From NCBI GenBank assembly GCA_024690665.1, contig JAILOU010000033.1, positions 60,155-124,154 on the forward strand: 64,000 bases of DNA, given 5' to 3'. This document shows positions 2,570 to 45,243 of the stretch, in pieces (positions within the stretch are counted from its first letter, which is position 1; each line of letters begins with the position of its first letter). The translations under genes were made by a program, and so were the position numbers. The notes under the pieces are model-generated. The model had not been told where the DNA came from and did not search any database. It saw only the letters and a list, made by a program, of their open reading frames with translations. Origin of the DNA: Eubacterium sp. (GTDB lineage Bacteria > Bacillota > Clostridia > Lachnospirales > Lachnospiraceae).

Positions 2570-4998
2570 TTCGCGGCTGCCTCCTTCTCTTTCTTCTCTT
2601 TAATCAGAGCTAGAATTCGCTCCGCAGTCATTGGGAAATAATGTGGTCTTACACCAACAGCCTGATAAATACCCTCTGACAATGCCGGTGCAATCGGAAT
2701 TGTGACAGATTCTGCCATACCTTTCGCACCAAATGGTCCATCCGGAAGCGGATCAGGATTTATTAATGAAATGAAATCCTCCTGCTTAGGACTTAACATC
2801 ATATCTGCTACGCGATAGTCTGCAAATCCCTTATTCATAATTGCACCATGCTCATCAAAGATTGGTTCTTCCTGAAGCATGTAGCTTGCTGCCAGCATTG
2901 TTCCGCCTTCAATCTGACCTTCTACCATCTTAGGATTAATAGGATTTCCTGTATCGGCAGCAGTTGCAACTCGAACAATCTTAACCTGTCCGGTTTCTTC
3001 ATTTACAGCAACTTCCATAGCGGCTGCTGAGTACTGGAACCAGTTCCACATACGCTTTGTGAGTCCATCATGACCCCATTTGCGAATTGGTGCCGGACAA
3101 AATACGCCGTGTCCGATTACCGGTGAAAATCTCTGTAATCCCCAGTTTCCCTGTTCATAAGGCGACGTGTTCTTAAACAGTTCAGAAAGCTCAATTTCAT
3201 CGATATCAGATCCGAGAACCTTCGCCTTATCACCATGAATAATAATTTTACTCTTATGAACGCCTACTTCTCTTGCAGCAGCTTCTTGTAATTTATCTTT
3301 TACTTCTTCTGCAGCAATCTTAACTGCATTACCGGTTGTATACGTTGTTCTAGATGATGCAGAATAGTTATCAAACGGTGTTACCTGTGTATCACCCTTG
3401 ATTACCTTGATGTTTTCTATTGGAAGTTCAAGCACTGTTGCTGCAATCTGAGCCATTACTGTAGTAGCACCCATTCCGTTTTCATCACAACTGATCAGTA
3501 CTTCTACGCTAGCATCACTATAATAACGAACGATTGCTTCAGCTCTTCCAAGTGGTGTGTTTTGCTTACCGCCGACACCACAACCTTTTCCTCGTTTCCA
3601 TACGGATCCATCCTGCTTTGATGGCTTATCCAATTCAATTGCATCTGCACAAGCACGTAAACACTTTTCTACACCAATTGAGGTAATCCGTTCACCGTAA
3701 CCATTGTTGGCACCCTTTTTAATAAAGTTTTTCGCACGCACTTCAACCGGACTCATGTTCAGTTTTTCTGCCAGCTCATTCATCAAAACTTCGATACCAA
3801 ACTCGGATTCCGGACATCCAAGACCTCTAAATGCACCTACCGGCATTGTATTTGTAACAGTCGCAGCCGTATCCATATGAATATTATCGATATCGTATAC
3901 ACAAACTGCTCCGGAAGAAGAAAGACGTCCCGTGTAAGATACGTTATTTTGTACTGCACCGATTTCCTCAACACAGTCATAATCCTGAGCGATTACGCGT
4001 CCATCTTTTGTTGCGCCAAGTTTTACACGTGTATAAACAGGCCATGCAAATGGTGATCCTTCAAACTGCTCTTTTCTTGTGTAATGATATGCACAACTTT
4101 TCTTTAGATAAAGCGACATCATAGAACAAAGCACTTCTACGTATGGTGCTAAACGTCCACCGAACGAACCTCCGATATGTGGCTGGATGGTACGAACCTT
4201 TGTCTCTGCCACTTCAAAAATATTTACAATCGCTGACTTAATAACGCCGTGTACACCACATCCGCTACCATAAACCGTGATACTATCATCCGGATTATAT
4301 GTACAGATTGCTGTCGCCATTTCCAGATGAGAATGTAAACGTTTTCCTGTACAGAACTCACCTTCCACGATGACATCAGCTTTCTTCATTGCCTCGTTAA
4401 CGTCACCCTTATCCAATACATAATTTCCGACAATGTTTGGTGAAGTTCCTTCACCTGCAAACTTACTGTCTACAATATCAAGACGTCCAATACCTGCCCA
4501 TGGATTGGATTTATCAATAGTACCTCCACGTCCTTTTTCCGGATCAATAATAGACTTCGGATTTGGATCAAGAGCTTCATACACATCTAAAATATGTGGA
4601 AGTTCTTCATATTCAAGCTCAATCGCATCTACCGCATCCTCTGCCAGTTCCGGCGTTTCTGCTGCGACGATGGCAATTGGCTGACCTGCCCAGATACATT
4701 CTCCGTCTACCGGAAATCGAACCTGTTCCGGAAGTCGCTCCATATGATATGGAGATCTTTCCATCGTAAAAATCCTTGCAACTCCCGGCATAGCCTCTGC
4801 TTTGCTCAGATCTAACTTTGTAATCTTACAATGTGCCACCGGACTTCTTAAAATCCGAATATGAAGCAAATCTGGAATATACTTATAATAATCACTTGCA
4901 AATAAGCCCTTTCCGGTTGCTTTTTCATAGGCATCTAAACGAATTGGATTCTTACCAATATAGTTATTTGCCTGTTCAGGGTTGTTTCCTGCACCCAC
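2566..4998 (-). CDS. Molybdopterin-binding (large) subunit of molybdenum hydroxylase / xanthine dehydrogenase family
   Basis: 810 aa, 'YEKATGKGLFASDY', 'PHIGGSFGGR', 'GPFGAKGMAES' motifs; overlaps next gene by 4 nt. Confidence 0.93.
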   Translation of the reverse strand: MGAGNNPEQANNYIGKNPIRLDAYEKATGKGLFASDYYKYIPDLLHIRILRSPVAHCKITKLDLSKAEAMPGVARIFTMERSPYHMERLPEQVRFPVDGECIWAGQPIAIVAAETPELAEDAVDAIELEYEELPHILDVYEALDPNPKSIIDPEKGRGGTIDKSNPWAGIGRLDIVDSKFAGEGTSPNIVGNYVLDKGDVNEAMKKADVIVEGEFCTGKRLHSHLEMATAICTYNPDDSITVYGSGCGVHGVIKSAIVNIFEVAETKVRTIQPHIGGSFGGRLAPYVEVLCSMMSLYLKKSCAYHYTRKEQFEGSPFAWPVYTRVKLGATKDGRVIAQDYDCVEEIGAVQNNVSYTGRLSSSGAVCVYDIDNIHMDTAATVTNTMPVGAFRGLGCPESEFGIEVLMNELAEKLNMSPVEVRAKNFIKKGANNGYGERITSIGVEKCLRACADAIELDKPSKQDGSVWKRGKGCGVGGKQNTPLGRAEAIVRYYSDASVEVLISCDENGMGATTVMAQIAATVLELPIENIKVIKGDTQVTPFDNYSASSRTTYTTGNAVKIAAEEVKDKLQEAAAREVGVHKSKIIIHGDKAKVLGSDIDEIELSELFKNTSPYEQGNWGLQRFSPVIGHGVFCPAPIRKWGHDGLTKRMWNWFQYSAAAMEVAVNEETGQVKIVRVATAADTGNPINPKMVEGQIEGGTMLAASYMLQEEPIFDEHGAIMNKGFADYRVADMMLSPKQEDFISLINPDPLPDGPFGAKGMAESVTIPIAPALSEGIYQAVGVRPHYFPMTAERILALIKEKKEKEAAAK

Positions 4999-19145: not shown

Positions 19146-20009
19146 ATGAGCAAAACAGGATTGATTATGGAAGGTGGCGGCATGCGCTGTGCGTATGGCG
19201 CCGCCTTATTAGATAGATTTTTAGATGATGGCATTTCTTTTGATTATGTCATCGGTGTTTCTGCCGGCGCAGGCTGCCTGGTCTCTTACCTTGGCGGACA
19301 GCGAGACCGTAACTTTCGCTTTTATTCGGTTCATTTAGATGACCCTGATTATTTTGGCGCCCGTACCTTTCTTAGAAATGGTTCTTTTTTTAATTTGCCT
19401 CATATCTATCACGATATGATTGTACATGACGGCGTCGATCCGCTAAATTATCCGGGTATTGCATCTAACCCTTGTGAACTTGAGATGGTGACGACAAATG
19501 CTCATCACGGCACCGCCGAATATCTGACCAAGGATGATCTTGCCCAGGATGATTATTGGGCGCTTATGGCTTCTTGCGCCATTCCGATTGTCTGCAAACC
19601 GATTGCTCATAATGGTCGCATGTACTACGACGGCGGCGTTGTGGATTCTATTCCTGTTGAACGTGCTCTCCTTAAAGGCTGTGACAAATTAGTGGTGCTG
19701 CTTTCGAGAGGCCGTGACTACAAGATGTCTCCGCAAAAATATCGCGTTTTGTATCACATGCTGCTTCACAAATATCCACAGACAGCCAAAGCGCTCGACA
19801 AGCGACATCTGCTTTATGAGGCTTCTCGTAGTAAGTGTTTTGATTTGGAAGAAAAGGGACAGGCCTTTTTAATTATGCCATCTCACGATCCGGGAGTTAC
19901 GCCTTATACGAAGGATGCCGGATTGCTAAAAGAATTTTATGAAATTGGGCTACGTGATTATGAAGATCTGAAAGAAGATTTGCTTCGATTTCTTAAGAGT
20001 TCTTTGTGA
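19146..20009 (+). CDS. Patatin-like phospholipase
   Basis: 'GLIMEGGGMRCAYGAALLD', 'VIGVSAGAG' GxSxG, 'YYDGGVVDSIP' DGG motif. Confidence 0.93.
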   Translation: MSKTGLIMEGGGMRCAYGAALLDRFLDDGISFDYVIGVSAGAGCLVSYLGGQRDRNFRFYSVHLDDPDYFGARTFLRNGSFFNLPHIYHDMIVHDGVDPLNYPGIASNPCELEMVTTNAHHGTAEYLTKDDLAQDDYWALMASCAIPIVCKPIAHNGRMYYDGGVVDSIPVERALLKGCDKLVVLLSRGRDYKMSPQKYRVLYHMLLHKYPQTAKALDKRHLLYEASRSKCFDLEEKGQAFLIMPSHDPGVTPYTKDAGLLKEFYEIGLRDYEDLKEDLLRFLKSSL

Positions 20010-20021
20010 TGATTTTTGATT

Positions 20022-20205
20022 GTGGGTGGGGATGGTTGCTTTCTCAGAGAATACGATTTCTCCCCGCACCGATGCCGCCGCTTTTCAAAATTTTTCTGCG
20101 TATCTTATGATTTGCCCGCCACCGCCCGTGTTCTGCTAGGATGGATGTTGTAAATTTACAAGAAATGGCCCATTGTGCCTTCGGCACACCTTACGGCATA
20201 AAAAA
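20022..20205 (+). repeat. Dispersed head repeat, copy 1, with truncated cloverleaf (arm 1 only)
   Basis: Shares ctttctcagagaatacgatttctccccgcaccga...cccgtgttctgctaggat...aagaaatggcc...tgtgccttcggcaca with reverse complement of ~44386-44200, and more weakly with 43491-43650. Confidence 0.88.
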
Positions 20206-43009: not shown

Positions 43010-43462
43010 ATGGGAAATACCTATGATACCTTTAATGAAATTCTCGTGAAACTGTTCAACGATATCACCGATATCGAGGCGCAGGCAATTATTACCGAGG
43101 AATTTAAAGATATTTCAAACAATGATTTTCATATTATCGAAGCAATTGGCTGTGATGAGCCTCAAAGCATGTCCTCCGTTGCTCATAAACTTAATATTAC
43201 CGTCGGTACTTTAACGATTGCGATTAATAACCTTGTGAAAAAGGGCTACGTTAACCGTTCCCGTAGTGATAAGGATCGCCGTGTTGTTTTAATTTCTCTC
43301 ACGGATAAGGGCATTACTGCTTTTATTCATCACAAGAATTTTCACGACGAGATGGTGAAAGCTACCGTCGAGGGGCTTAATGATGAGGATCGCCAGGTTC
43401 TTGTTAAGGCCTTGTCCAATCTGAGTAATTTCTTTAAGAATTATATGAACCGTACTTCTTAG
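43010..43462 (+). CDS. MarR-family transcriptional regulator (FabT-like)
   Basis: 'VAHKLNITVGTLTIAINNLVKKGYVNRSRSDKDRRVVLISLTDKG' wHTH. Confidence 0.88.
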   Translation: MGNTYDTFNEILVKLFNDITDIEAQAIITEEFKDISNNDFHIIEAIGCDEPQSMSSVAHKLNITVGTLTIAINNLVKKGYVNRSRSDKDRRVVLISLTDKGITAFIHHKNFHDEMVKATVEGLNDEDRQVLVKALSNLSNFFKNYMNRTS

Positions 43463-43490
43463 TGCGGTTCTTTTTTTTGTGGTTGTTTTG

Positions 43491-43606
43491 GTGAGTGGCG
43501 TTTCCTCAAAGGCATACTATTTTCTCCTGCACCGATGCCGCCGCTATTCGCTTCTTTCCTGCGCATCTTTGTTTCGCTCGCCGGCGCCCGTGTTCTGCTA
43601 GGATGG
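43491..43606 (+). repeat. Dispersed head repeat, copy 2 (left arm of inverted-repeat structure)
   Basis: gcaccgatgccgccgct...gcgcccgtgttctgctaggatgg shared with 20022-20205 and reverse complement of ~44270-44386. Confidence 0.85.
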
Positions 43607-43621
43607 TTGTGATTATATTAC

Positions 43622-43741
43622 ATGAAATGGCTGCTGTGCCTTCGGCACAACTTCCGTAATAAAAGAATCGGAGGAATTGCAAGCAAGCTTGCTCCTCCGA
43701 TTCTTTCATTCCTAATCTGCTTTGCAGATAAGCCATTTCAT
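43622..43741 (+). other. Cloverleaf-like fold A (closing stem plus three hairpins)
   Basis: Closing stem atgaaatggct (43622-43632)/agccatttcat (43731-43741); arm1 tgtgcc-ttc-ggcaca (43635-43649); arm2 14-bp stem 43662-43675/43693-43706 with inner gcaag-caag-cttgc; arm3 atctgc-ttt-gcagat (43715-43729). Confidence 0.8.
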
Positions 43742-43750
43742 TTACGTTAA

Positions 43751-43880
43751 CCGAGGCAGCCTCGGTTCGCCCGGTGACTCGCTATCGATGCTCGTCAAGA
43801 ACCGGCGGCTCTCGACGTGCAGTTCGAAAATGTATCCTTTTCGGTCACTGGTTGTTCCCTACCGCAACAAAACTCAATGC
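43751..43880 (+). repeat. Second repeat module, copy A
   Basis: ccgaggcagcctcggttcg...gatgctcgtcaa...ggcggctctcgacgtgc...ttcgaaaatgtat; matches reverse complement of ~43990-44125. Confidence 0.75.
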
Positions 43881-43935
43881 ACTAGTGGCCGGAACATAAA
43901 TTTCAAAAATCAGAGCTACCTCCGATAGTGTAAAA

Positions 43936-43974
43936 GAAATGGCTTGTTGTGTTGCAAACACAACAGGCTATTTC
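43936..43974. repeat. Central small palindrome of inverted-repeat structure
   Basis: gaaatggc ... tgttgtgtt-gca-aacacaaca ... gctatttc. Confidence 0.8.
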
Positions 43975-43989
43975 CTGTAACCAACTCCC

Positions 43990-44125
43990 CCGCTATGAGA
44001 ACCCATTGTTTCGCCGGGAATAACCTTCCTTCTTTCGAAGAGAATACATTTCGACAAGCACATCGAGAGCCGCCAAAATTTTACGAGTATCTGATGCACG
44101 CCAAACCGAACCGAGGCTGCCTCGG
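43990..44125 (-). repeat. Second repeat module, copy B (inverted relative to copy A)
   Basis: Reverse complement contains ccgaggcagcctcggttcg...gatactcgtaaa...ggcggctctcgatgtgc...tcgaaatgtat. Confidence 0.75.
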
Positions 44126-44133
44126 ATGAAGAA

Positions 44134-44255
44134 AAGAAATGGCCCGTCTGCGTAGCAGACTAGGCATGGAAAAAGCAAAGAACGCAAGCTTGCTTGTGGT
44201 TTCTTTGCTTTTTTTATGACGTAAGGTGTGCCGAAGGCACAACAGGCCATTTCTT
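44134..44255 (-). other. Cloverleaf-like fold B (closing stem plus three hairpins)
   Basis: Closing stem aagaaatggcc (44134-44144)/ggccatttctt (44245-44255); arms gtctgc-gta-gcagac (44146-44160), 13-bp stem 44170-44182/44201-44213 with inner cgcaag-cttg-cttgtg, and tgtgcc-gaa-ggcaca (44227-44241). Confidence 0.8.
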
Positions 44256-44264
44256 GTAAACATA

Positions 44265-44386
44265 CTATATCTATCCTAGCAGAACACGGGCGGTGGCGGG
44301 TAAAACACAAGATACGCAGTAAAATTTTGAAAAGCGGCGGGTCGGTGCGGGGAGAAATCGTATTCTCTGAGAAAGCACCACCTCAC
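44265..44386 (-). repeat. Dispersed head repeat, copy 3 (right arm of inverted-repeat structure)
   Basis: Reverse complement gtgaggtggtgctttctcagagaatacgatttctccccgcaccga...cccgtgttctgctaggat; near-identical segments to copy 1. Confidence 0.88.
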
Positions 44387-45243
44387 GACTCGCGGCGAAC
44401 AAGTTCATTATACACATCACGCTTACTTACGCCCCTGTCCTTTGCCACCAGTTTCATAGCATCCTTTCGGGCGATTCCCTGATTCTCATAATGGGCCATA
44501 TGTTCCTCAAGACTCATCATTTCCCAGTTTTTCCGCTCCTCATCTCTTTGCTCCGCAAAACTTTTACCTTCAATCAAGATCACATACTCACCACGCGGCT
44601 CCTGACGATTGTAGAAATCCAGCGCCTCGGCAAAAGTTGTCACAAAAACATTTTCATAACGTTTGGTAATTTCCTTAACAAGTGTAATCTTGCGATTACC
44701 CAGTTGATCATATAACTCCTGTAACGTTTTCTTCAGATGATGCGGCGCCTCATATAATATAATGGTTCGGCTTTCCGTTTTAAGCTGTTCATAGATATCC
44801 TTTTTGAGTTGTTTGTCCTTTGGTAAAAAAGCTTCAAAGCAAAAACGACGAGACGGCATACCGGAGAGTGCAAGAGCACTGACACACGCGCAGGCTCCCG
44901 GCGCAATTGAGACATCAATACCGGCCTCGTGACATAGCCGCACCAGATCCTCACCGGGATCAGAGATTCCCGGCATTCCGGCATCCGTAATAAGCGCAAT
45001 GTCCTTGCCCTCCCGTAACTTTTGAATCAGCTGGTGCGCCTTTTCGATCTTATTAAATTCATGATAACTTGTCATCGGTGTCTTAATTTCAAAATGATTG
45101 AGCAATTTAATTGAATTTCTGGTGTCCTCAGCTGCAATCAGATCCACTTCCTTTAACAGCCGGACCACCCGATATGTCATATCCTCAAGATTACCGATTG
45201 GCGTTGCACATAGATACAACGTCCCCATATTCGTCTCTTCCAT
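44383..45243 (-). CDS. rsmI: 16S rRNA (cytidine-2'-O)-methyltransferase RsmI
   Basis: 'GTLYLCATPIGNLEDMTYRVVRLLKEVDLIAAEDTR', 'ITDAGMPGISDPGEDLV'; start may be 45228. Confidence 0.96.
   Translation of the reverse strand: MEETNMGTLYLCATPIGNLEDMTYRVVRLLKEVDLIAAEDTRNSIKLLNHFEIKTPMTSYHEFNKIEKAHQLIQKLREGKDIALITDAGMPGISDPGEDLVRLCHEAGIDVSIAPGACACVSALALSGMPSRRFCFEAFLPKDKQLKKDIYEQLKTESRTIILYEAPHHLKKTLQELYDQLGNRKITLVKEITKRYENVFVTTFAEALDFYNRQEPRGEYVILIEGKSFAEQRDEERKNWEMMSLEEHMAHYENQGIARKDAMKLVAKDRGVSKRDVYNELVRRES

What the first reader, a model, noticed from the sequence alone, without database searches (positions are those of the whole stretch)
43622..44255. Two cloverleaf-like folds with a covarying middle arm and conserved apical motif
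Both folds have an 11-bp perfect closing stem (gaaatggc.. / ..gccatttc) enclosing three hairpins. In the + sense of A and - sense of B the order is TGTGCC-TTC-GGCACA, a long middle hairpin, and (A/G)TCTGC-NNN-GCAGA(T/C). The middle-arm stems are unrelated in sequence (AAGAATCGGAGGA/TCCTCCGATTCTT versus AAAAAGCAAAGAA/TTCTTTGCTTTTT) yet both pair perfectly, while the apex CAAGCAAGCTTGC is shared. Arm 3 also changes compensatorily (A-T to G-C at its base). Pairing conserved across sequence change suggests selection on structure.
Basis: seen in the sequence. Interest (0 to 1): 0.85.

Follow-up and report, generated by a model that had tools for sequence, protein, structure and literature searches.

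The report
Gene-end hairpin repeats with swapped tips
The two folds are two of about 40 copies of a large folding DNA repeat that sits at the ends of genes in this bacterium; its base stays put while its cloverleaf-shaped tip has been replaced by unrelated but equally well-folding tips, so the tip behaves like an exchangeable part that probably includes the gene's stop-transcription hairpin.

Summary
Both folds are the tips of ~325-350-bp hairpin units, in two frame classes (A, B), with 37 full-length copies in the genome. At least 30 of 36 primary sites lie just 3' of a co-oriented gene. Pairing is really constrained: in close copies, paired positions change far less than unpaired ones, and covariation exceeds all 500 shuffles. 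In Eubacterium oxidoreducens all six units sit at orthologous sites. Frames there are 92-98.5% identical, yet in 4 of 6 the whole ~150-nt cloverleaf is a different type; across copies, frame and cassette similarity are uncorrelated. So the tip is an exchangeable non-coding cassette, probably moved by recombination between copies. The middle arm resembles a bidirectional intrinsic terminator; units occupy the place of simple terminators in the relative. Loops (GNA/GNRA, CUNG) suggest the folded strand is antisense to the nearest gene. The apex motif caps terminator-like hairpins across Lachnospiraceae (~400 hits versus 4 control) and occurs in Clostridiales-1 RNA, but the units do not match that family. 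The mobilising enzyme and any function beyond termination are unknown.

The parts
43511..43837 (+). Unit A (frame class A) in the orientation of the upstream MarR-type gene; ends GGCATACTATTTTC...GAAAATGTATCC, with a variable basal stem continuing a few bases outwards
   Evidence: 90-91% identical copies elsewhere in the genome; boundaries from the alignment of all copies and from the basal pairing
43590..43602 (+). Left joint GTGTTCTGCTAGG, almost invariant in both frame classes
43603..43751 (+).
43658..43710 (.). Middle arm of A: terminator-like hairpin with conserved apex GCAAGCAAGCTTGC
43752..43765 (+). Right joint CGAGGCAGCCTCGG, almost invariant in both classes
43910..44004 (-). Relic of a third unit: closing stem plus arm 1 only, with a degenerate right joint
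   Evidence: (31.5 bits, model 1-178) and direct reading
44042..44366 (-). Unit B (frame class B) directly after the stop codon of the rsmI-type gene (TGA at 44383-44385)
44125..44274 (-).
44165..44218 (.). Middle arm of B: terminator-like hairpin (AAAAAGCAAAGAA/TTCTTTGCTTTTT) with conserved apex
20048..20205 (+). Truncated B unit elsewhere in the window, after the stop codon of the gene ending at 20009
   Evidence: the E. oxidoreducens orthologue has no unit (L257)
43010..43462 (+). MarR-type regulator gene; its own terminator (AACCGTACTTCTTAGTGCGGTT-TTTTTTTT) precedes unit A
   Evidence: orthologous order without units in L077
44383..45243 (-). rsmI-type (16S rRNA ribose methyltransferase-like) gene, convergent with the MarR gene; unit B starts at its stop codon
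   Evidence: named from resemblance, no family search run

Best explanation
The two folds are the tips of two members of a dispersed, non-coding, gene-end repeat family (about 350 bp, 37 full copies). Each unit is a long imperfect hairpin (a 'frame', class A or B) that carries at its apex a ~150-nt cloverleaf cassette: closing stem, small arm, terminator-like middle arm with a conserved G(CUNG)C cap, small arm. SHOWN: copy number, position just 3' of genes, pairing constraint, and wholesale replacement of the cassette inside nearly unchanged frames between two species. INFERRED: the unit entered gene 3' ends as a MITE-like element, took the place of the simple terminator there and now ends transcription, in both directions, through the middle arm. 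Purifying selection keeps the stems paired. Recombination (gene conversion or template switching) between copies, guided by the almost invariant joints on either side of the tip, exchanges the cassettes.
For: 37 full-length matches in the own genome. 30 of 36 primary sites begin a few to ~100 nt after the stop codon of a co-oriented gene (my tally). Units are absent at about 12 of 13 orthologous sites in E. oxidoreducens, many of which carry a simple terminator instead, and absent at the window locus in L077. At 5 shared loci frames are 92-98.5% identical while flanking DNA is about 81-95% identical; 4 of 6 cassettes are of another type, 65-70% identical in the three measured. Frame and cassette identity are uncorrelated (r = -0.03 within class, 0.00 between classes), and frame alleles 1-25 nt from the cassette show almost no association with cassette type (2 of about 20 sites nominally significant). 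Three cassette types occur in both frame classes. Paired sites are conserved in close copies. T tracts follow the middle arm on both strands (mean longest run 4.8 and 5.5).
Against: No transposase, target-site duplication or autonomous parent was found. The only intact Y1 transposase found (L265) has no units around it. One E. oxidoreducens site (L249) retains a unit stub, so some absences are losses. Six of 36 sites are not in a clear gene-end position. Termination was not measured. The genome is fragmented (57 contigs, 87% complete), so single cassette assignments could be assembly chimeras, although the E. oxidoreducens genome alone shows several cassette types in one frame class.
Confidence: 0.6

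Rival explanations
1. Plain compensatory evolution of one RNA: all tips descend in place, and stems change by paired mutations under RNA-level selection, without exchange.
For: Covariation is significant, and stepwise double changes exist within types.
Against: At orthologous sites the tip changes as a block while frames are 92-98.5% identical. Frame and cassette similarity are uncorrelated. Close copies show almost no double changes (1 in 569 pairs). There is no clear G-U preference on either strand (85 G-U versus 122 A-C cells).
Confidence: 0.1
2. Site-specific cassette system: an unknown recombinase or transposase recognises the folded single strand or the joints (GTGTTCTGCTAGG / CGAGGCAGCCTCGG) and inserts or swaps cloverleaf cassettes into frames.
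For: Sharp boundaries at the joints, almost no association of nearby frame alleles with cassette type, joints conserved in both classes, the right joint is a palindrome, and cassettes cross between A and B frames that are only ~70% identical.
Against: No complete frame was seen without a cassette, no free circular or tandem cassettes, no candidate enzyme. Heterology-limited gene conversion could give similar boundaries.
Confidence: 0.18
3. The folded strand is the one antisense to the nearest gene and the element acts as a separate structured RNA (or single-stranded DNA hairpin), like Clostridiales-1 RNA; termination of the neighbouring gene is secondary.
For: On that strand about 75 of 84 small-arm loops are GNA or GNRA-type and the cap is G(CUNG)C, its RNA MFE is lower in 30 of 31 copies, and T runs are longer. 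Clostridiales-1 carries the same cap on its annotated strand.
Against: The nearest gene usually lies on the other strand, no conserved promoter was identified, and G-U versus A-C counts (122 versus 85 on that strand) are not decisive.
Confidence: 0.12

Closest known systems
BOX and SPRITE repeats of Streptococcus pneumoniae (PMC3049150)
   Same: Dispersed, highly folding, modular (boxA-boxB-boxC) or terminator-like (SPRITE) repeats. SPRITE resembles a Rho-independent terminator, and the paper reports a strong enrichment of one such element near the 3' ends of convergent genes.
   Different: BOX varies by the number of similar boxB modules. Here a single apical module is replaced by unrelated-sequence equivalents while architecture and joints are kept. 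No sequence relation was tested.
MITE-like bcr1-bcr3 repeats of the Bacillus cereus group (PMC3446304)
   Same: Multi-copy intergenic repeats, described there as MITE-like and often part of UTRs.
   Different: No exchangeable cassette is described in the passages read. The present units are longer, with a branched tip, at gene 3' ends; no target duplication was found.
Clostridiales-1 RNA (Rfam RF01699; PMC2864571)
   Same: Branched element with a closing stem and three arms; the long arm has the same G(CUUG)C cap; multi-copy and near gene ends in other Lachnospiraceae.
   Different: The arm order differs, and the units do not match the model, whereas a separate locus of the same genome does (C28:8861-9033, 62 bits).
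REP elements and RAYT transposases (PMC3733652)
   Same: Palindromic, gene-end repeats whose stems vary with pairing kept.
   Different: REPs are 20-40 bp with a GTAG or CGTC tag. These units are ~350 bp, and no associated transposase was found.

Membership tests
MITE (miniature inverted-repeat transposable element) | Non-coding, multi-copy, with terminal inverted repeats and a folding body | tested here: met
   37 full copies; GGATACGATTTC...GAAATGTATCC-type ends that pair
MITE (miniature inverted-repeat transposable element) | Target-site duplication or a clean empty site | tested here: inconclusive
   Sites without units found in E. oxidoreducens, but flanks too diverged to define the insertion point; no duplication seen
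MITE (miniature inverted-repeat transposable element) | A partner transposase sharing the ends | tested here: inconclusive
   Only Y1 transposases were searched: one intact, unlinked to units; other transposase families not tested
Clostridiales-1 RNA (RF01699) | Match to the Rfam covariance model at or above the gathering score | tested here: not met
   No hit in 43450-44400 even at E <= 5; genome search finds one true member elsewhere (C28) and none at units
Clostridiales-1 RNA (RF01699) | Long arm capped by GCUUGC | tested here: met
   Cap shared on the reverse-complement strand
Intrinsic (Rho-independent) terminator | GC-containing hairpin followed by a T run | tested here: met
   Middle arm on both strands; mean longest T run 4.8 and 5.5
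Intrinsic (Rho-independent) terminator | Transcripts end there | not testable with these tools
   No RNA data available
REP element with RAYT | Short hairpin with GTAG/CGTC tag next to a RAYT gene | tested here: not met
   Units of ~350 bp; the Y1 transposase found is not flanked by units
Known Rfam RNA families in general | Any match at gathering threshold in the window | tested here: not met
   Only two tRNAs in the whole window

The most novel reading that the evidence does not exclude
A non-coding cassette system: structurally equivalent but sequence-unrelated cloverleaf tips are moved by a structure- or joint-specific recombination mechanism between fixed hairpin frames at the ends of genes, so that the 3' regions of dozens of genes are periodically re-tipped.
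Probability: 0.2. Interest if true: 0.8.

Novelty: new variant of a known kind. Interest (0 to 1): 0.6.

Why it matters
Covariation is the standard evidence for functional RNA structure. Here much of the apparent covariation between copies arises by exchange of whole pre-folded modules, which per-family covariation tests would read as independent compensations. The element also shows that the gene ends of a bacterial genome can carry ~40 copies of a repeat whose frame is at least as conserved as the neighbouring coding DNA while its tip is freely replaced, which makes the rules of ectopic exchange at hairpin apices directly testable. The apex motif links it to a wider, largely undescribed set of large branched gene-end structures in Lachnospiraceae.

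Tried and rejected
Rfam membership: none; Clostridiales-1 tested genome-wide and not met for the units. Rapid rewriting of palindromes by template switching (paired changes made at once): rejected, because close copies show 15 single but only 1 double change in 569 pairs. RNA strand from wobble counts: undecided (85 G-U versus 122 A-C cells; isolated mismatches 8 versus 19). IS200/IS605-type partner: the intact Y1 transposase is not associated. Phage or plasmid origin: no match to unit A in phages or unit B in plasmids; a viral-contig pattern scan gave only 17-25-nt chance-like matches. Exact pattern search for the short closing stem found nothing because the enclosed length exceeds the pattern limit. 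Many model hits in other genera covering positions 62-125 only are generic strong hairpins and were not counted as relatives.

Full report
WHAT IS THERE. Both folds exist as described and are far more stable than shuffled sequence. They are the tips of larger units. Each unit is a ~325-350-nt imperfect hairpin whose ends (GGCATAC/GAATACGATTTC and GAAAATGTATCC) pair with each other and enclose a long stem, two conserved joints and the cloverleaf. In the window, unit A is + 43511-43837 and unit B is - 44366-44042, lying between the convergent MarR-type and rsmI-type genes, with a decayed third unit between them.

A REPEAT FAMILY AT GENE ENDS. A genome search with the window DNA gave about 43 unit places including truncated ones; a covariance model of the tip gave 37 full-length hits at 132-196 bits. 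Units fall into two frame classes, A and B. Of 36 primary sites (contig-edge copies, tandem copies and one duplicate locus left out), at least 30 begin shortly after the stop codon of a co-oriented gene of 146 or more codons (my tally). In most of them no other terminator is visible between stop codon and unit; about five have one. Every convergent pair of units is one A facing one B (nine in this genome, one in E. oxidoreducens). One inference is that two like units facing each other would form a near-perfect long palindrome and be lost.

PAIRING IS SELECTED. On 22 diverse tips, 85.2% of cells form pairs versus 35-44% with partners slid by 1-3 columns; the covariation score is 0.248 versus 0.116 +/- 0.009 shuffled, 0 of 500 reaching it. 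The frame covaries too: 51 of 126 strand-neutral consensus pairs of the whole unit show two or more Watson-Crick types. In 12 independent pairs of close tips, 62 of 650 unpaired positions differ, but only 16 of 569 base pairs changed, 15 by a single and one by a double substitution. So stems are maintained by constraint and are not continually rewritten.

THE TIP IS EXCHANGEABLE. It has six units, all at sites orthologous to units here. In four of the six the tip is a different type. For L037A/L157A frame identity is 98.5% and tip identity 70%; for L045A/L161A 97.5% and 65%; for L048A/L158A 92% and 65%; the fourth (L033A/L166) is a truncated copy. Flanking DNA at these loci is about 81-95% identical, so frames are as conserved as, or more conserved than, neighbouring genes. 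The switch is confined to the stretch between GTGTTCTGCTAGG and CGAGGCAGCC. Over all 42 tips, frame and tip identity are uncorrelated (r = -0.03 within a class, 0.00 between classes), and frame alleles within ~25 nt of the tip are mostly not associated with tip type (A-class 3' sites at 21 and 25 nt are nominal exceptions). Three tip types occur in both frame classes. Hence the striking 'unrelated middle stems that both pair' of the finding reflects which of about ten tip types each unit carries.

WHAT IT PROBABLY DOES. The middle arm is a hairpin with a T run on both strands. At about 12 of 13 tested unit sites, the E. oxidoreducens orthologue has no unit, and many have an ordinary short terminator or another hairpin array after the stop codon; one (L249) retains a 30-nt unit stub, showing a deletion. 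Thus the unit stands where the terminator was; that it terminates transcription is inferred, not measured.

WHICH STRAND FOLDS. On the strand antisense to the nearest gene, about 75 of 84 small-arm loops are GNA triloops or GNRA-type tetraloops, the cap is GCAAG(CUNG)CUUGC, RNA folding energy is lower in 30 of 31 copies, and T runs are longer. CUUG and GNRA loops are classic stable RNA loops and GNA triloops are very stable in DNA (my knowledge). Substitution counts do not settle the strand.

WIDER SETTING. GCAAGCNAGCTTGC occurs about 400 times in 101 of 299 Lachnospiraceae genomes versus 4 times for the reversed control (my sum). In other genera it often caps hairpins of large branched structures just after genes, including groEL and tuf, and the long arm of Clostridiales-1 RNA; some occurrences are in coding sequence. 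The present units are not Clostridiales-1 members. Units with recognisable frames were seen only in the window's genome and in E. oxidoreducens among 61 relatives; two other species of the same genus had none.

LIMITS. The genome is fragmented and 87% complete; assembly chimerism in repeats cannot be excluded for individual copies. No expression or recombination data were available. The mobilising machinery was looked for in one transposase family only.

Noticed in passing
L286 (G160, tuf 3' end), L207 (G156), L278 (G233), L229, L239: Very large branched palindromes (-135 to -170 kcal/mol in ~314-nt stretches for the first three) directly after genes in other Lachnospiraceae genera, sharing only the GCAAGCNAGCTTGC cap; no Rfam match at gathering threshold.
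   Followed up: partly
L280, L281, L283, L284, L224, L243: Clostridiales-1 RNA (RF01699) copies carry the same cap; the motif search gave 60 matches in one genome (G220), where two of three loci read are Clostridiales-1, suggesting it is itself a dispersed gene-end repeat.
   Followed up: partly
G000:C28:8861-9033: One genuine Clostridiales-1 RNA in the window's own genome (62 bits).
   Followed up: no
L256 and L259 (E. oxidoreducens orthologues of unit sites L041 and L043): A different multi-hairpin repeat (AACTCAGTCGGAG...CTCCGACTGAGTT with inner hairpins) occupies the same gene-end positions in E. oxidoreducens.
   Followed up: no
Between paired units, e.g. L037, L039, L046, L051: Short inverted motifs TTTGTAACT...AGTTACAAA recur in the spacer between units, as does a GGGACG(G/T)TCC...TTTGCCACG motif.
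   Followed up: no
L053 about 3227-4290: Three tandem B units with a ~388-nt period after one gene; only one copy in the E. oxidoreducens orthologue (L160).
   Followed up: partly
L046 about 7570: A B unit with an internal deletion between two TCTGCTA repeats (left joint and arm 3), showing recombination at short repeats within the unit.
   Followed up: no
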